Virus record (IMG/VR): IMGVR_UViG_3300025000_000324
Location: 1-30,377 of that record
DNA from: a virus
DNA length: 30,377 nucleotides
Direction: 5' to 3' (one strand)
In this document: positions 1-25,383 of the stretch, one piece after another
Numbering within the stretch: position 1 is the first letter of the stretch
How the letters are laid out: each line of letters starts with the position of its first letter
Program-made: the position numbers and the translations under genes
Notes under the pieces: generated by a model
What the model saw: the letters and a program-made list of their open reading frames with translations, nothing else
What the model was told of the DNA's origin: nothing
Database searches by the model: none

Positions 1-73
1 TATGATGTTTTTCAACTTCCATATTAAACACATCTGACTTACCAACATATTTTACCGATTTAACCTGTACCAC
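1..73 (-). CDS. Split-intein C-terminal half (Int-C) joined to terminase large subunit C-terminal part, 5' end only
   Basis: The frame opens with GTG at 73, directly after an in-frame TAG (77-79), and has a strong AAGGAGG at 83-89 with a 9-base gap, so this is a separate translation start. The 24 visible residues begin MVQVKSVKYVGKSDVFNMEV and continue with EKHH. This is the pattern of intein block F in naturally split inteins such as Npu DnaE Int-C (short lead, a YxGxxxVxxxxV core, then a [DE]xHHN-like motif). The rest of Int-C, the Asn-Cys/Ser splice junction and the terminase C-extein lie beyond the left edge. I infer that its product trans-splices with the TerL-IntN protein encoded at 693-2483. 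Confidence 0.85.
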   Translation of the reverse strand, partial: MVQVKSVKYVGKSDVFNMEVEKHH

Positions 74-76
74 AAA

Positions 77-301
77 CTAAAACCTCCTTATACCATTTCG
101 TTTAAGGAGCATTAATTTTGCACTACACTTCCTTGAGCATGTCTTTGTTTTAGAATATTTATTTATTGGGAATATTTTTTCGCAAACAATACATACCCTC
201 TCAATATCGTCCACACCTATACTTCTCCTGTATGCAGACTTGCACTTATTAGAGCAAAACCTACTATGATCTCTCATCATTATGCTTGTCTCATATTGCT
301 T
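77..301 (-). pseudogene. C-terminal zinc-finger part of the HNH endonuclease, cut off by an in-frame TGA
   Basis: This is the direct in-frame continuation of the HNH gene past the TGA at 302-304. Its 74 codons plus the end of the upstream part form two zinc fingers of the type common in HNH homing enzymes. The first is CDLC (upstream of the stop) with RFCSNKCKSA; the second is CIVCEKIF with TCSRKCSAK. The stop sits exactly where the second finger has Glu and where related fingers often have Gly or Arg, so one base change from GGA or CGA would explain it. The tail could be untranslated, made by readthrough, or reinitiated at ATG 280 or 277. It ends in TAG just upstream of the Int-C start. Confidence 0.7.
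83..89 (-). promoter_or_regulatory. Ribosome binding site of the Int-C reading frame
   Basis: The minus strand reads AAGGAGG nine bases before GTG 73. It shows that the C-terminal half is translated independently and is not reached by readthrough from the endonuclease gene. Confidence 0.8.
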
Positions 302-745
302 TCAGCATAGGTCACACTTGAGGACTATCATCTGGTCCATGTATAAACCAAGAGATTTGTGCCAATTCTTTCTCGACACCTCTCTTGCTTCATCCGTATG
401 ATGCCACTCAGTAGCAAGGTGTCTGTATTTGTCTAAATTCTTCCTTTTCCTTTCCAAACATTCTCCGTCAATATTGCTGAGTAGTGCATGTAGTTTTAGA
501 TGATCTTCTTTTTTCATCGCAACCAGATTATCAATATAGTTATTATCCTTGTCTAAATCGACATGGTGGACATGATAACCTTTCGGCACTTTTCCGTTAC
601 TACATTCCCATACATAAACATGCAGTCTTTTGGGTTTTTTATCTATAGTTGCTAACCAATAACCTTTACCGTCTTTATAAAACTTAACTCCGTTAAAGAT
701 TATGTATTGTGTTGTTATTGTTTTTGTTTCTGTTACTATTTGCAT
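302..745 (-). CDS. Free-standing HNH homing endonuclease between the two halves of the split terminase gene
   Basis: 147 residues to the TGA at 302-304. The HNH core is HVHHVDLDKDNNYIDNL at about residues 58-74, with the histidine pair and the Asn typical of HNH_3-type homing nucleases. A basic helical segment with WHHTDEAREVSRKNWHKS follows, as in target-recognition modules. Start ATG 745 has GAGGTG seven to eight bases upstream. The first 53 bases overlap the end of the TerL-IntN frame in another phase. The gene lies exactly where a contiguous intein carries its homing endonuclease, so its expected job is to spread the split-intein locus into intein-free terminase genes. The nuclease core is intact but the C-terminal zinc fingers are cut off. 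Confidence 0.85.
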   Translation of the reverse strand: MQIVTETKTITTQYIIFNGVKFYKDGKGYWLATIDKKPKRLHVYVWECSNGKVPKGYHVHHVDLDKDNNYIDNLVAMKKEDHLKLHALLSNIDGECLERKRKNLDKYRHLATEWHHTDEAREVSRKNWHKSLGLYMDQMIVLKCDLC

Positions 746-2483
746 GATTCACCTCTAATGATACGTCGATAATAAAATCATTGTCAGTAAGTTGCTCAAC
801 TAATTTCCATCCGCTATTAGTAAGTACAGGATGATCTTTAGTTGCAACAATATTTCTTCCGTCACATAGTTCTATTTCATACACATCCACATTCTCTCTT
901 GTTAACCTAACATCAGAAAAAGTAGATACTGACATGCACTTGTTTTCTTCGTCATAACAATATATACAACCTAATTTACCGACTAAATCCTTAATAGGAA
1001 AGTCGCCATTAGGAGTATTTATTATTGTTTGTCCAATCAAACATGCCTCCGGCGCGTGTGTGACCTCGTGTGGAGTATCTGCCGCATCCTCGGAGTCATT
1101 CTTATCATGTTCAAGTAGTGGTAAACACCGTATAAGATTCTTACATTCCTCAAATATCTTCAGTTTAGAAGTAAGTACAGTAACCGCATCAATACCTTCA
1201 TCAGTAATAACGTCCTGCTTTTCCTCTCTAACCAATAGATATTCCCTTAATGCCCTCCAACCTGCAACACGGTCATGCTTTGCTTTTCTCAGATTATTAA
1301 GTCCAGCACGATTCATTATCTCCCTACCGCTTGTCCCTGTCTCTTGTCGTCTATTCCACAAGTCAGGAGAAGCAACCGTATAGCTAATTTTCTCGTCTTT
1401 GGGTGTCATGGAGATAATCTTTTTCGCCGCTTGACTAAGGGTTAAGTTGGGTTGATATAACTCACGATAAGCGCACATAATGCCTTCGGGCGATACTGCC
1501 CACCAGTGACATGAACACATATCAAGTCCATAGTCCAACGAGCAGAACCTTTTCCACCAGGACGGTATCTTAAAAGGTTTAACGACATGCACATCACGAC
1601 GAAACTCTTTAAAGAACTGCCCTTCACCGGCAGTAAACGCCTCTTCCGGAGTTGCTGGATACTCTGCCATATAACTATGAGGTAAGTCTTTTTTGACCTG
1701 CTCATACCACTCCTGGGTACGTCTAGGGTCGGTACTCCAAGGCATAAATATAGGCGTAAACGTATTCTCACCGTTGTACGCCTTCCAAAATATTTCCTCA
1801 AATAAGGTACCTTTTTTAGCGGTAGATAACCCAATAACCTGTCCACCAGTAGGACGGTTAATAGTCGGATAAGCAGCAGACCAAATATCTCTAGCGAACA
1901 TCTGAAACGCCCATTCGTCAAGTATTACAAGGTTAGCTGTGAAAGAGCGTCCACTGTCAGGACCGGCAGACATAGCGTTAAAAACAGCAGGTTCCTTGCC
2001 TTTATGGTAGATAGTAACCGACAATACCGTTGAATCCCACGTAGGGTTAGGATATTGCTTCGGAGTACCCTTAACGTGACGAATCATCCATGAAGGTAGA
2101 TACCTCAGAATAAAGCAAATACGCCTGACAAGTTCCTTAGCATCCTCTTCCCTTTTAGACAGAGCAACAACAGAATATCCAGGTCGAAATATAACCCCGT
2201 GCAATCCGTAAATAAGAGATAACCAAGTAAAACCTAACTGCCGCGCTTTAAGTATAATTGATAACTTACTGTCAATAATCTTCCTTAACGCTTCCTTCTG
2301 ACCGTCCCATAGGTTGAGTTTGGCAACTAAGTCTTGAACGTCTCTATCCTCAATGTAGGCGTACTTATCTATGAAATACTCTACACTCTTAGAGGATTTA
2401 CGATATTCTAACTCAACTTTTGCTGCCGCTTTTTCCCTTAACTTCTGAGTGGATAGTTTTTTCTTTTCCTGCTGTTCGGTCAT
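693..2483 (-). CDS. terL: Terminase large subunit N-extein fused to split-intein N-terminal half (Int-N)
   Basis: The large terminase packages phage DNA: ATPase motor plus RNase H-fold nuclease. Seen: terminase-type Walker A KARQLGFT (residues 79-86), Walker B LVILDEWAF (185-193), nuclease acids in SLDYG (D317), SPDLW (D374) and EDAADT (about 466-469). After HEVTHAPEA the frame switches at Cys481 (codon 1041-1043) to an intein: block A CLIGQTIINTPNGDFPIKDL, and block B with DGRNIVATKDHPVLT. About 95 residues resemble a real Int-N. The last 20 or so are Asn-rich and come from the overlap with the HNH gene. The C-extein, which should complete the last nuclease motif, is missing here and presumably follows Int-C (1-73). 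ATG 2483 has AAGGTGAT upstream. TerL function would then depend on protein trans-splicing. Confidence 0.92.
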   Translation of the reverse strand: MTEQQEKKKLSTQKLREKAAAKVELEYRKSSKSVEYFIDKYAYIEDRDVQDLVAKLNLWDGQKEALRKIIDSKLSIILKARQLGFTWLSLIYGLHGVIFRPGYSVVALSKREEDAKELVRRICFILRYLPSWMIRHVKGTPKQYPNPTWDSTVLSVTIYHKGKEPAVFNAMSAGPDSGRSFTANLVILDEWAFQMFARDIWSAAYPTINRPTGGQVIGLSTAKKGTLFEEIFWKAYNGENTFTPIFMPWSTDPRRTQEWYEQVKKDLPHSYMAEYPATPEEAFTAGEGQFFKEFRRDVHVVKPFKIPSWWKRFCSLDYGLDMCSCHWWAVSPEGIMCAYRELYQPNLTLSQAAKKIISMTPKDEKISYTVASPDLWNRRQETGTSGREIMNRAGLNNLRKAKHDRVAGWRALREYLLVREEKQDVITDEGIDAVTVLTSKLKIFEECKNLIRCLPLLEHDKNDSEDAADTPHEVTHAPEACLIGQTIINTPNGDFPIKDLVGKLGCIYCYDEENKCMSVSTFSDVRLTRENVDVYEIELCDGRNIVATKDHPVLTNSGWKLVEQLTDNDFIIDVSLEVNHANSNRNKNNNNTIHNL

Positions 2484-10294: not shown

Positions 10295-11356
10295 ATGACA
10301 CAAAGAGTACAAAACATCTACTTAGTACCGACCAAGGAATTAGCTCAAAACTTGCCTTTCGAGGCACACTGTTGCGTAGAAACCGAATACGGCGATTGGG
10401 CACTCGAGGGAACTATTTATACCGCAAACCATCACTTGCCTAAGTACGCCGGGCAACCTGCGCCTTGCAATGTTGACCTGCCGAAAGACTACCATACGGG
10501 GTTGCCGATGGGCGTCAACATCGTGGTCAGTCACATTGACCTTGATACCGTTCTGGGTGTCATGGGACTCATGGGGGAATGGTATTTCATCCCTAAAAAG
10601 TTCCGCGAGGTTGCCGAGTTTATCGACTTGAACGGGCCGCATCATATATACATGTTCGACCAAGAGACTCAGGATCTGTTCAACGCTTACTGGGCATGGA
10701 ACGCACTGCCGGAAAACCGCGCTCCGAGGGTAGCCGATATTACCGACATTACTGCTACAATTCACAAGTATATTGAGTTTTTTGAATTGCTGTTTGACCT
10801 GTATGCTCACAACTCGCCTCCACTTATCAAGGAAGGGCGCGAATGGGCAGCAAATATCCAGCGCGAAACCGAGTCAAAACTACTCATGGAAACCGAGAAT
10901 TACCGTGTTTTTAGTACGGATGGCGTATTTTGTGGGGCAAGTTACTACTCCCCAACCCACCGCACGATCGCCAAAGCTGTAGTCAGTTTCAACGAAAAAT
11001 TCAAGGCGATCACGGTTTCCTGCTCAGACGGATCGATTGACTGCCGCGCACTGGTTCAGTCACTTTGGGGGCCGGAGGCAGGCGGTCATAAGGGGATCGC
11101 CGGAAGTCCGAGGGGTATGGTGATGGATGATTACGAACTGAAACGCGCTGTCCATGCCGTTAAGCGTGCAACATTGGAACACATAGATCTTCCTTGCAGT
11201 ATGCAAGATTCATACACGGGTTATTGTCCAGAAGATTACCAGTGCTATAACCAGTACAAAGGTAACTTCTGCCCAGTCCTCAAGGAGTGCATTAAAAACG
11301 TCTTTGAGTGGGGACATACGGTAACCGTCAGGGATTTAGCGGAAATATACAAGTAG
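10295..11356 (+). CDS. Putative DHH/DHHA1-family phosphoesterase
   Basis: 353 residues, the largest accessory gene. Near the C-terminus CSDGSIDCRALVQSLW is followed by GGHKGIAGSPRG (263-274), close to the GGH-x-x-A-A-G signature of DHHA1 domains that bind substrate in DHH phosphoesterases. The N-terminal half has NHH (45-47) and SHIDLDTVLG (79-88), acidic and His residues that could form the metal site. If so, the order of motifs is not the canonical one. DHH enzymes cut short RNAs, DNA ends or cyclic dinucleotides. A phage form might remove a host signal, but that is conjecture. The C-terminus adds several Cys (CSMQDSYTGYCPEDYQC). Confidence 0.5.
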   Translation: MTQRVQNIYLVPTKELAQNLPFEAHCCVETEYGDWALEGTIYTANHHLPKYAGQPAPCNVDLPKDYHTGLPMGVNIVVSHIDLDTVLGVMGLMGEWYFIPKKFREVAEFIDLNGPHHIYMFDQETQDLFNAYWAWNALPENRAPRVADITDITATIHKYIEFFELLFDLYAHNSPPLIKEGREWAANIQRETESKLLMETENYRVFSTDGVFCGASYYSPTHRTIAKAVVSFNEKFKAITVSCSDGSIDCRALVQSLWGPEAGGHKGIAGSPRGMVMDDYELKRAVHAVKRATLEHIDLPCSMQDSYTGYCPEDYQCYNQYKGNFCPVLKECIKNVFEWGHTVTVRDLAEIYK

Positions 11357-15323: not shown

Positions 15324-16043
15324 TTAATTAACCCCCAATCTCGGATAAGGTTTACCGCACGACTTACCTTCTGTGCATTTTCTGGTCTGGCAAGGCGCAC
15401 CGCAATGATTAAAAATAAGCGGCCATTCTTGCTGAAAAAGTTTCAAAATCTGCTGTGCTAAGTCCAGCGTTACCGGCGTATTTCTCTTACAGATACGTTT
15501 TTGTATCCAGTTAAACCATGCCCATAAATTACCTGCTAATACGGTATTAGCCTCGGCAGAGTTCGGCAGAACTGCCCTGGCGTTCATTCTGGCTTCTTCT
15601 GGTGTAAATCCTCGTTCAATCAGTCTTTTTTTATGGAAATCATATTCAGTTTGAAGTGCCTCCATTAACCACCTAAAACGCTCCATTGCATAATCATCAT
15701 CGGTCATTATTTGCGGCACATGATACCTAAAATCCCGATGATCTACATACTGCTGGGACTGGGTAACGGTCTTGACAAATGCGTGAGTATTTAACTGAGT
15801 TAGGCACTCCCTAGTCACATTAACTGCTACCGCCACTGATACCACGTTAAACACTGCTAAATGACCAGACTTGGCGCAATGCGCTATTACGCGCTCAATA
15901 TCTTGCTGATTAAGTAGTTCGATGATTGTCTGCACATCAACAGGACTGTAGCATTGTTTTGCTGTCCCTGCACATGCCTTATAAGCGTCTGCCGGTATTG
16001 ATTCACGAATAATTCTTGCTTCCAAAAATGTTTGTGTTGCCAA
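15324..16043 (-). CDS. ThyX-like flavin-dependent thymidylate synthase homologue with an altered signature
   Basis: 239 residues from TTG 16043, with GGGGGA upstream. The ThyX layout is clear: SGHLAVFN, then TQLNTHAFVKTVTQSQQYVD, then ARAVLPNSAEA, NLWAWFNWIQKR and a Cys-rich tail CGAPCQTRKCTEGKSCGKP. The ThyX signature R-H-R-x7-S is T86-H87-A88-x7-S96 here, and the usual N-L-R is N-L-W. In ThyX these arginines hold dUMP and the flavin, so normal dTMP synthesis is doubtful. It may act on another nucleotide or be a structural relic. The dCMP deaminase and MazG-like neighbours support a nucleotide role. Confidence 0.75.
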   Translation of the reverse strand: MATQTFLEARIIRESIPADAYKACAGTAKQCYSPVDVQTIIELLNQQDIERVIAHCAKSGHLAVFNVVSVAVAVNVTRECLTQLNTHAFVKTVTQSQQYVDHRDFRYHVPQIMTDDDYAMERFRWLMEALQTEYDFHKKRLIERGFTPEEARMNARAVLPNSAEANTVLAGNLWAWFNWIQKRICKRNTPVTLDLAQQILKLFQQEWPLIFNHCGAPCQTRKCTEGKSCGKPYPRLGVN

Positions 16044-17158: not shown

Positions 17159-18145
17159 CTATGCCTCTCTATGCCCCATAACGCCTCTACCAAATGGTTC
17201 TGTGCCACTTAAAATAGCGTTTCCACAGGTTATGCGCCCTTCATCTTCTTCCCTTGACGCTATAAATACTAATACATCAAAACCGGCATTTCTTAAAGCA
17301 TATTCATAATGCTCATATGGATATGGTTCAGTATAATCTCCACCCGTTTCTATGCCATTTTCTAACGCCATTTTAGTTTTGTGCATCGGAGTTAATTTTA
17401 CGATAAATTTCTTAGGATGAAATAATCTCCTTAATTTTTCAGCATCAATCTCATAATCAGCAACCGCAAAGTTCAGTGTATACTTTCTACCTTTTGGCAT
17501 GTCTAACATATCACCTATTTCCATTATCTTATCTAAAGACAATGAATTTCCACTAAACATATCTTCCCTTTCCTTGTCACTTGTAGAATTTATAGAAAAT
17601 TGAAGTCCGGCATCGCCACGGAAAAGATCGTTTTTAATCTCTATCCACTCATTCAAGAAATCATTTAACTTACTGTTTTTCTTTGGCAACATAGTAGAAA
17701 CTACCGGGTGAATTAAACTTCTCCCAATATAGGGATACAATTCTTTTCTCATATACCAAGAAAAATCCAAAACATTCCTATTCCATGTCGGTTCTCCCAT
17801 GCGAGCATAATGGATATTTAGCCTCTTAGTAGACGTAACTCCTGGATGAAGTTTTAAGCCTTCGACAATCTGGTTTTTTAAGTCGCTATATGTTGCATTT
17901 ATGCCAGGACCAACTTTAGGAACGTCGCAAAATTTACAATTCATCGAGCATCCATACTGAGTTGATATTGTTATTACCCATTTTTCTTCTAATGGCATAA
18001 TATTACAATGCTCAACTTTCTTACCTTGATTCAGATTTATATCTTTGCCGTAATCTCCTATTGAAAGAAATTCAAGAAGTCCTTTTTCTCCCCTAGCTAT
18101 ACAGATATTTCCTGTTGGTACTGATACATTTCTTTCTATTTTCAA
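17159..18145 (-). CDS. RlmN-like radical SAM methyl synthase
   Basis: 328 residues from TTG 18145, with GGGGGAG upstream. The [4Fe-4S] motif is C66-x3-C70-x2-C73 in YGCSMNCKFCDVP. It is followed by IHYARMGEPTWN (the GEP SAM motif), QFSINSTSD, VKLTPMH, and near the end RITCGNAIL with Cys307. That Cys sits where RlmN/Cfr enzymes have the C-terminal methyl-carrying Cys (A-C-G-Q-L). RlmN methylates A2503 of 23S rRNA and a set of tRNAs. A phage form could change host translation or modify another nucleic acid. No family search was run. Confidence 0.75.
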   Translation of the reverse strand: MKIERNVSVPTGNICIARGEKGLLEFLSIGDYGKDINLNQGKKVEHCNIMPLEEKWVITISTQYGCSMNCKFCDVPKVGPGINATYSDLKNQIVEGLKLHPGVTSTKRLNIHYARMGEPTWNRNVLDFSWYMRKELYPYIGRSLIHPVVSTMLPKKNSKLNDFLNEWIEIKNDLFRGDAGLQFSINSTSDKEREDMFSGNSLSLDKIMEIGDMLDMPKGRKYTLNFAVADYEIDAEKLRRLFHPKKFIVKLTPMHKTKMALENGIETGGDYTEPYPYEHYEYALRNAGFDVLVFIASREEDEGRITCGNAILSGTEPFGRGVMGHREA

Positions 18146-22595: not shown

Positions 22596-23177
22596 TCAGC
22601 TAACTAACTTGTATAAATAAATATGTTTACCCTTGGTTTCCTGGTAAAATGCTTGCCCGTTCTTTAATGCCTCGGCAATTTTAACCGCATAAGGTTTTAG
22701 TTTTCCATTATGATACGTCCTTATGGTCTTGTCGTGGTATCTCTTGCCGTTAAAAATTATCACTTTACCCTTTTTAGTCATTCCTAAATATGTGAAATTG
22801 GTTGCCTGATATATAATTACCTTATGCCCAAAGTCCATGTCGGCATATGATATAACCTTTTTAACGTCAGTGTTTTTCCTCAACCACCTAAGACAATGAC
22901 CTATGAAGTATGACTCTGTATTCTTAGGAGTTTCGTCAATACAGCACAACCTTCTTAATTCAATCAACTCGGTACGACTATCGGCATATTTCTTCCAAAC
23001 ATTAGCCATGCCCATTTCAGCGAATATGGCAGCACCGATTAAATCATTACTACTTTTAAGCATAAAGCAATACTTAGACTTAACCCCGTTAACATTTCCT
23101 GAGTAGTGCCAATGCTCTATAAATTCCCTTATATCTTTTATGTCGCAAGTAGCAACAGTAAAGTTTTTTACTTTCAA
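22596..23177 (-). CDS. Mom-like DNA adenine modification enzyme (GNAT fold)
   Basis: 193 residues from TTG 23177, with AGGAGG upstream. The sequence has EHWHYSGNVNGVKSKYCFML, LIGAAIFAEMGMAN, ELIELRRLCCIDETPKNTES, and ISYADMDFGHKVIIYQATNF. These match my memory of phage proteins related to Mu Mom, which turns adenine into N6-(carbamoylmethyl) forms in DNA to block restriction. The usual H-Y-[SL]-x-x, E-L-x-R-L and Y-A-D motifs are present. The family assignment needs a search. With the methyltransferase at 24091 it suggests protection of phage DNA. Confidence 0.75.
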   Translation of the reverse strand: MKVKNFTVATCDIKDIREFIEHWHYSGNVNGVKSKYCFMLKSSNDLIGAAIFAEMGMANVWKKYADSRTELIELRRLCCIDETPKNTESYFIGHCLRWLRKNTDVKKVISYADMDFGHKVIIYQATNFTYLGMTKKGKVIIFNGKRYHDKTIRTYHNGKLKPYAVKIAEALKNGQAFYQETKGKHIYLYKLVS

Positions 23178-24090: not shown

Positions 24091-25383
24091 CTATTCCATT
24101 ACCAAGGTTCTATTTAAAATATCATCACAATACTCCATTTCTTTCTCAATAACGACTACCCCAAAACCTTCCTCATGAGCTGCTTGTAAGGTTGTCCCAC
24201 TACCACCGAAGGGGTCTAAGACAATGCCTCCTGGAGGTGTGATTAATCGGCATAGATAACGGATAAGGTTAAGCGGTTTAATCGTCGGGTGCTTACTGCC
24301 TGCTCGGTCTAATTTTGAGGCTTTAGCTGTGTAAAAAAATCTACTGGCACCGCCTGAGTCATTATGTCCACCTCTTGCAGTTTTCTTTTTACCTGCCCAC
24401 ATGCCGGGGTCATTGCCTCCAAAACCTCCCGATTTGCTAACCGTTTTACCGCTCTGCCTGTCCAACTCTGCCGCCGCTTCCTCGGAAAATATTACGTTGG
24501 CAGGGAATCTGCCCAGTTGTTCAGCCTTAGCCACTTTTTCGGATGTCTCTAATGCTTTTACTTTAGCCACTTCTGGGTTATGCCTCCAAGGTCTATCCCA
24601 ACCATCACTCGCCGGAGTAGTACCATTAAGCATGCCCCCACCCAATTTATCAGTAGTAGGTATCCGGCACTTATCAATATTTAATCCGGCAGTCCCCCAC
24701 TTCAGAACATTAGCGGCAACCGTTTTCTCTGATAAAGGTTTACGGGCAAGGCATATAGGTTCATTTGCAGGTTTTAGTGCTGTACCAAATCCTTGCCATT
24801 GTTTCGCTTCGTCTGTAGAAGGAGTAGTTATATAATTAGGTTTTCTATTTTGGTCTGACCATTTATCCGACATTTCTTTATTTGTTCTACCATTTCTAAG
24901 CATACCAGATGATTGTTTTTCACCTATAATTTCTCTTTCTTTACCTTCTTTCTTATCAATCATCTTACTTATATCTTGCGATTTTGGAAATCCAGTCCCA
25001 TACAACCATTGAATCTGATCTCTAATCTCAAAACCTGCGTCCTCAATAGCACATGCCATGCGGTGATATGTCCTTGTGCCACCAAACGCTAATAAGTGAC
25101 CTCCAGGCTTAAGCACCCTAAAAACTTCTTTCCATGTTTCTGTTTTAAACGCTATCCCGGTTCCGTCCCATTCTTTGCCCATAAAACCCTTACCCTGTTT
25201 TTCCTTTTTATTTCCTCTGCCAAAACTTTCACCATCATAATGACCAGGGAACGCTGAACGTCTTGCCGCCCCCGGACTTGTTAAATCATATGGCGGATCA
25301 GTCACCACGCTGTCAAAACTATTGTCTGGAAACTGCCTCAACACGTTCCGACAGTCACCGTTGAAAACTTTATTATCAACCAA
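24091..25383 (-). CDS. Site-specific DNA methyltransferase (N4/N6, beta-type order)
   Basis: 430 residues from TTG 25383, with GGGAGG upstream. Motif IV DPPYDL is near the N-terminus (29-34). Motif I (GGIVLDPFGGSGTTLQAA, 390-398 core) is near the C-terminus. The order IV...I and the DPPY mark the beta class of amino-methyltransferases acting on adenine N6 or cytosine N4. A long middle region (HYDGESFGRGNKKEKQ through SEEAAAELDRQ) is the target-recognition part. No restriction gene is visible, so it acts alone, most likely to protect phage DNA. Confidence 0.88.
   Translation of the reverse strand: MVDNKVFNGDCRNVLRQFPDNSFDSVVTDPPYDLTSPGAARRSAFPGHYDGESFGRGNKKEKQGKGFMGKEWDGTGIAFKTETWKEVFRVLKPGGHLLAFGGTRTYHRMACAIEDAGFEIRDQIQWLYGTGFPKSQDISKMIDKKEGKEREIIGEKQSSGMLRNGRTNKEMSDKWSDQNRKPNYITTPSTDEAKQWQGFGTALKPANEPICLARKPLSEKTVAANVLKWGTAGLNIDKCRIPTTDKLGGGMLNGTTPASDGWDRPWRHNPEVAKVKALETSEKVAKAEQLGRFPANVIFSEEAAAELDRQSGKTVSKSGGFGGNDPGMWAGKKKTARGGHNDSGGASRFFYTAKASKLDRAGSKHPTIKPLNLIRYLCRLITPPGGIVLDPFGGSGTTLQAAHEEGFGVVVIEKEMEYCDDILNRTLVME

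What the first reader, a model, noticed from the sequence alone, without database searches (positions are those of the whole stretch)
1..2483. Fractured terminase gene: TerL-IntN, free-standing HNH gene, then IntC-TerL
Seen: terL runs to HEVTHAPEA and switches at Cys481 to intein blocks A and B, then stops. An HNH endonuclease gene follows with its own ribosome site. Then a new frame starts at GTG 73 with AAGGAGG, and its first 24 residues match intein block F. Known: fractured genes with split inteins around a homing endonuclease gene have been described, mostly from metagenomic phage data. Inference: this phage makes its packaging motor by protein trans-splicing. The insertion sits at the last nuclease motif (EDAADT...HAPEA), so an unspliced TerL should lack a complete nuclease.
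Basis: partly seen in the sequence, partly recalled or inferred. Interest (0 to 1): 0.92.

Follow-up and report, generated by a model that had tools for sequence, protein, structure and literature searches.

The report
Phage packaging gene split by an intein
This phage's DNA-packaging enzyme is encoded as two separate proteins that a split intein should stitch together, with a now-broken DNA-cutting gene in the gap; many related phages instead hide the same cutting gene inside an unbroken intein, in another reading frame.

Summary
Confirmed. The window holds TerL residues 1-480, then Int-N (Cys481, 116 aa), an HNH_3 gene, and at its edge the start of Int-C. A longer contig of the same phage (L002) supplies the rest: a canonical Int-C ending HN, then Cys+1 and the last 51 TerL residues. 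The joined exteins have 531 aa, exactly as in an intein-free relative (L007). Two relatives, with and without intein, share the N-extein with 2 mismatches in 1,440 bp and diverge right at the site. One correction: in this phage the HNH gene carries an in-frame TGA; sister copies are uninterrupted and under purifying selection.

The window is a new member of a known kind (fractured genes with split inteins). Isolated, infectious Lactobacillus phage CL2 has the same layout as the only TerL found in its genome, its C half unannotated.

The survey was more surprising. The same HNH family sits at the same TerL nuclease motif in two architectures: fractured (39 distinct loci) and nested (59). In nested loci TerL plus intein is one stop-free frame and the HNH gene is overprinted out of frame on the intein linker; the HNH frame is conserved as protein, the linker merely kept open. 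A 2025 preprint I could not read may describe similar inteins.

The parts
1044..2483 (-). TerL N-extein, residues 1-480 (ATPase and most of the nuclease domain, to ...HEVTHAPEA)
   Evidence: PHROG 2 E 5e-32; intact relatives align to residue 479-480 and then go on as TerL
693..1043 (-). Int-N, Cys481 to residue 596 and stop TAA; intein blocks A and B
   Evidence: TIGR01445 above cut-off; Foldseek of the AF2 model matches Ssp DnaB mini-intein and Npu DnaE split intein
750..755 (-). GAGGTG, ribosome-binding site of the HNH gene, inside the Int-N frame
   Evidence: sequence
302..745 (-). HNH_3 endonuclease gene, first part (147 aa), ends at an in-frame TGA at 304-302; overlaps Int-N by 53 bp
   Evidence: Pfam HNH_3 E 2.6e-14; broken frame
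77..301 (-). Remainder of the HNH frame beyond the TGA (74 codons, Cys-rich, treble-clef-like), to TAG 79-77
   Evidence: uninterrupted in L004 and L006
83..89 (-). AAGGAGG, ribosome-binding site of Int-C-TerL
   Evidence: sequence; kept in L004 and L006
1..73 (-). Start of Int-C (GTG, 24 codons, block F), cut by the window edge; on L002 continues as ...GGLIVHN|C + TerL C-extein (51 aa)
   Evidence: L002 7411-7671; TIGR01443 above cut-off

Best explanation
A homing intein sits in the last nuclease motif of TerL (Glu479-Ala480 | Cys-Arg-Tyr). Its gene is fractured: TerL-Int-N and Int-C-TerL are translated from two separate starts around a free-standing HNH endonuclease gene (anatomy shown). The two intein halves should associate, excise themselves and ligate the exteins to a 531-aa TerL (inferred). 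The HNH protein should cut intein-free terL copies near the Arg-Tyr codons so that the element is copied into them (inferred from position, patchy presence and recombination edges). In this phage the HNH gene has recently acquired a stop codon: splicing must be kept for a working TerL, mobility is probably lost (inferred).
For: Canonical Int-N and Int-C halves and HN|C junction. Precise empty site in close relatives, joined product 531 aa = L007 TerL. With/without pair L004/L007: 2 mismatches in 1,440 bp of N-extein, 6 of the first 12 bp differ after the site. L002/L004 identical from near the end of HNH through 2.5 kb downstream but 33-35% synonymous divergence in HNH and Int-N. HNH under purifying selection, dN/dS 0.026 and 0.10. 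No HNH gene in the intein-free relatives at this locus. No second TerL found. Isolated phage CL2 with the same layout and no other TerL found; infectious (PMC6563197).
Against: No protein data. The Int-C end is read from other contigs of the same phage group, not from the window record. Records are metagenomic and may be incomplete. HNH cleavage and target are untested; the HNH is broken in this phage.
Confidence: 0.88

Rival explanations
1. The two TerL pieces work as a two-subunit enzyme without splicing, and the intein halves are dead remnants.
For: A phage enzyme broken by an endonuclease gene and working as two peptides without splicing is on record for a ribonucleotide reductase (cited in PMC10448857).
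Against: Both intein halves keep their sequence motifs and splice-junction residues (Cys1, C-terminal His-Asn, Cys+1) in L002, L004 and L006, and Int-C dN/dS between L004 and L006 is 0.07; dead halves should decay.
Confidence: 0.05
2. The HNH protein is a packaging partner of TerL (as the HNH proteins beside terminase genes in other phages) and not a homing endonuclease; the intein is just a landing place.
For: HNH proteins next to terminase genes are described as packaging components (Kala 2014, cited in PMC12613952); free-standing members of this HNH family lie beside terL or terS in several phages.
Against: Intein-free close relatives lack the HNH at this locus, the gene is broken in this phage, and the family follows the intein at one motif through very different TerLs.
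Confidence: 0.07
3. The TGA is read through or recoded, so a full 222-aa HNH protein is made.
For: The frame beyond the TGA is still 97% like L004.
Against: Sister copies have no stop there, and a recent stop explains the intact remainder equally well.
Confidence: 0.05

Closest known systems
Fractured genes with split inteins (Dassa et al. 2009, NAR 37:2560; content from memory and from citations in PMC10448857 and PMC7090010; full text not held)
   Same: Conserved phage gene broken by a split intein with a free-standing endonuclease gene between the halves.
   Different: Here the host gene is TerL and the endonuclease is of the HNH_3 type; from memory, about half of the 2009 loci had Vsr-like endonucleases. 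The endonuclease gene is broken in this phage.
Naturally split TerL inteins AceL-TerL and GOS-TerL (PMC11766414)
   Same: Split inteins in phage TerL from environmental sequence.
   Different: Those are atypically split, Int-N 25-37 aa and Int-C 104-115 aa; here Int-N is 116 aa and Int-C 36 aa, the usual split position.
Contiguous TerL inteins of mycobacteriophages (PMC5050341) and cyanophage Mic1 (PMC7156551)
   Same: Inteins in TerL; Mic1 has one in the nuclease domain.
   Different: Contiguous; the mycobacteriophage ones are all in the ATPase domain; Mic1's large intein is described with a homing endonuclease domain in frame.
Hidden out-of-frame HNH insertions in phage DNA methylases, ShiLan domain (PMC11855218)
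   Same: HNH gene of about 195-220 aa overprinted out of frame on an insertion without stops in the host frame, as in the nested relatives found here.
   Different: ShiLan has no intein domains and is not thought to splice; the nested relatives here have intein halves on both sides. The window itself is fractured, not nested.

Membership tests
Fractured gene with split intein | Conserved host gene broken in two at the intein, exteins joining to a full protein | tested here: met
   480 + 51 = 531 aa, equal to intact TerL L007
Fractured gene with split intein | Intein N half and C half with splice-junction residues | tested here: met
   Cys1; HN|Cys+1; TIGR01445 and TIGR01443 above cut-off
Fractured gene with split intein | Free-standing endonuclease gene between the halves | tested here: met
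   HNH_3 gene with its own start and ribosome site; broken in the window, uninterrupted in L004 and L006
Fractured gene with split intein | Protein trans-splicing takes place | not testable with these tools
   Needs protein experiments; indirect support from CL2
HNH homing endonuclease | Cuts the intein-free allele at the insertion site | not testable with these tools
   Only indirect: patchy presence, sharp recombination edges at the site
AceL/GOS-TerL atypical split inteins | Short Int-N (25-37 aa) with long Int-C | tested here: not met
   Int-N 116 aa, Int-C 36 aa
Nested (overprinted) HNH intein | One stop-free frame over TerL, both intein halves and linker, with HNH in another frame | tested here: not met
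   The intein region has 12-34 stops in every frame of L002, 37 in the intein frame of L006

The most novel reading that the evidence does not exclude
Fractured TerLs like this one are one of two old forms of a single mobile element. In the other form, common in phage TerL genes, the intein stays one open frame and the HNH homing endonuclease gene is overprinted out of frame on the intein linker, so one DNA stretch encodes both a conserved nuclease and a spliced-out linker that is merely kept free of stops: a way for an endonuclease to live in an intein without being fused to it.
Probability: 0.7. Interest if true: 0.78.

Novelty: new member of a known kind. Interest (0 to 1): 0.6.

Why it matters
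TerL is essential for DNA packaging and a common marker gene; in loci like this one annotation gives a truncated terminase plus an HNH gene and misses the C half. The loci supply many natural split inteins at the usual split position, and phages already in culture (Lactobacillus CL2, Brochothrix BL3; nested: Tetrasphaera TJE1, Acinetobacter Highwayman) in which trans-splicing and overprinting can be tested directly. The two architectures side by side make the question of how endonucleases enter inteins, and how split inteins arise, open to experiment.

Tried and rejected
Both AF2 models are weak overall (mean pLDDT 47 and 52, shallow alignments); only the TerL nuclease part and the intein half are usable. 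Considered and rejected: recoding of TGA; two-subunit TerL without splicing; HNH as packaging partner; chance as the cause of the nested class (59 open frames where about 7 are expected from synonymous codon shuffles; 0 of 56 fractured or free-standing HNH genes have an open alternative frame; 5 of 174 stretches of long ORFs). The nested class is defined by its open frame, so this compares classes and is not an independent p-value. Dassa 2009 and the 2025 actinobacteriophage intein preprint are not held.

Full report
OBSERVATION. On the minus strand the window reads TerL (2483 to 1044), Int-N (1043 to 693, stop TAA), an HNH gene from ATG 745, and from GTG 73 the first 24 residues of Int-C. Pfam HNH_3 (E 2.6e-14) and the intein splicing domain PF14890, NCBIfam TIGR01445 above its cut-off and PHROG 2 terminase large subunit (E 5e-32) confirm the parts. 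The window is its whole record (30,377 bp), so its left end had to come from elsewhere. IMG/VR contig L002 is identical over TerL-Int-N and longer. There the frame from the GTG reads MVQVKSVKYVGKSDVFNMEVEKHHNFSVNGGLIVHN | CRYAVMSRPPISKDDKYSFPDDMSLSEQSAVLSNIAFEKEYEKLQEHIVGF and stops: a canonical Int-C (TIGR01443 above cut-off), Cys at +1, and the missing C-extein.

L002, L003 and L012 carry it too; L004 and L006 have uninterrupted genes.

EMPTY SITE. Intein-free relatives (L007, L008, L010, L011, L013-L015, L017, L018) read straight across the site, for example HEVTHSPEE-V-RYAVMSRPP and HEVTHSNES-L-RYSVMSRPP. The joined exteins of this phage (480 + 51) have 531 aa, as has L007. The intein lies two residues after the position (Glu479) that aligns with the acid of the DALRY-type motif in related TerLs (assignment by alignment and general knowledge of TerL nucleases).

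MOBILITY. L004 (with intein) and L007 (without) differ at 2 of 1,440 bp in the N-extein (at -1201 and -25) but at 6 of the first 12 bp after the site and about 10% beyond. L002 and L004 are identical from near the end of the HNH gene through Int-C, C-extein and 2.5 kb further, yet differ at 33-35% of synonymous sites in HNH and Int-N. Between L004 and L006 the HNH gene differs at 71% of synonymous sites against 32% in the N-extein, so element and host gene do not share one history. HNH dN/dS is 0.026 and 0.10: it was kept as a working protein until recently. The stop codon in the window's lineage fits the decay phase of a homing cycle with splicing retained (inference). L005 has a further damaged HNH and an Int-C cut short at its start, either a dying copy or an assembly error.

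EXPRESSION AND FUNCTION. HNH ATG 745 has GAGGTG upstream, inside the Int-N frame; Int-C GTG 73 has AAGGAGG at 9 bases, a site kept in L004 and L006. Trans-splicing is inferred. The best indirect support is the isolated Lactobacillus paracasei phage CL2: TerL 506-1954 ends in Int-N, HNH 1967-2590 follows, and an unannotated frame up to 2774 holds Int-C, HN | CMDATRYF and the TerL end. No other TerL was found in its complete record, and the phage is infectious (PMC6563197). Brochothrix phage BL3 has the same break with most of the HNH gene lost. An AF2 model of the window protein, weak overall, matches TerL nuclease domains and, over the intein half, Ssp DnaB and Npu DnaE inteins.

WIDER FAMILY. 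Searches with 15 HNH relatives and HMMs of Int-N, Int-C and HNH gave, after removal of duplicates, 121 HNH genes: 59 in contiguous inteins, 39 in fractured genes, 17 without intein, 6 incomplete. The scans return only the best 80 loci each, so this is a sample. In the contiguous class TerL-IntN-linker-IntC-TerL is one stop-free frame and the HNH gene lies in it in another frame of the same strand (51 in frame +2, 8 in frame +1). Named phages: Tetrasphaera TJE1 (TerL 728 aa), Acinetobacter Highwayman (760 aa) and a Rhodobacteraceae phage; no HNH gene is annotated there.

Synonymous codon shuffles predict about 7 open frames among these 59; fractured and free-standing HNH genes have 0 of 56 open, with 7-10 stops in the easier frame and about 20 in the other. 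In 71 nested pairs of 55-97% nucleotide identity the HNH frame is more conserved than the linker frame in all 71 (means 0.59 and 0.37). Nested HNH starts have a Shine-Dalgarno match of 4 or more bases in 31 of 59 cases, inner start codons in 6 of 52. In an AF2 model of one nested precursor the linker stays below pLDDT 50 (shallow alignment). So the HNH frame behaves as a gene and the linker is only kept open.

Both architectures use the same two positions of the TerL motif: before the acid (DH | C.DALRY; 48 of 59 nested, 28 of 39 fractured) or after it (xxxA | CRYA; window clade and others). On a quick HNH tree the nested and fractured labels need 3 changes, so they are clustered, old lineages; the window's clade lies among fractured elements, many from Bacillota. 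Support is moderate and the root unknown, so the direction of change is open.

KNOWN OR NEW. The window's arrangement is that of fractured genes (Dassa 2009, cited in PMC10448857 and PMC7090010; full text not held). TerL split inteins are known (AceL-TerL, GOS-TerL) but atypically split (PMC11766414). Hidden out-of-frame HNH genes are known in phage methylases without intein domains (PMC11855218); its authors cite a preprint on actinobacteriophage inteins with non-canonical architecture, not held, which may already describe overprinted HNH genes in inteins. Hence the window is a new member of a known kind; the nested class may be new or recently anticipated.

Noticed in passing
L082, L083, L104, L107-L110, L113, L201, L217, L218 and others (59 distinct loci): Contiguous TerL inteins with the HNH gene overprinted out of frame on the linker; unannotated in Tetrasphaera phage TJE1, Acinetobacter phage Highwayman and a Rhodobacteraceae phage.
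   Followed up: yes
L111 (Lactobacillus phage CL2, KR905067) 506-2774; L117 (Brochothrix phage BL3, HM144386) 727-2607: Isolated phages with fractured TerL; in CL2 the Int-C-TerL half is unannotated, in BL3 it is gp3 without function and only the tail of the HNH gene remains.
   Followed up: partly
L005 2600-3150: HNH catalytic HH segment replaced by a stop-bearing stretch, and Int-C lacks its first 17 residues but still has a ribosome site and ATG: dying copy or assembly error.
   Followed up: no
L098 2601-3100: The TerL ORF upstream of the split intein seems to hold a second, endonuclease-bearing intein in the ATPase domain.
   Followed up: no
L102 4327-5008: HNH gene of this fractured terL is also broken (two frames).
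   Followed up: no
L115 (Acinetobacter phage BP10) versus L109 (Highwayman): The same HNH family is free-standing upstream of terS in one Acinetobacter phage and nested in terL in another.
   Followed up: no
window 22596-23177 (-): Mom-family DNA modification protein (Pfam E 1.5e-32), near an N6/N4 DNA methylase at 24091-25383.
   Followed up: no
window 15324-16043 and 17159-18145 (-): Thy1 thymidylate synthase, and a weak radical-SAM match that fits PHROG 24834 of unknown function very well.
   Followed up: no
window 10295-11356 (+): 353-aa ORF on the opposite strand with no Pfam or PHROG match.
   Followed up: no
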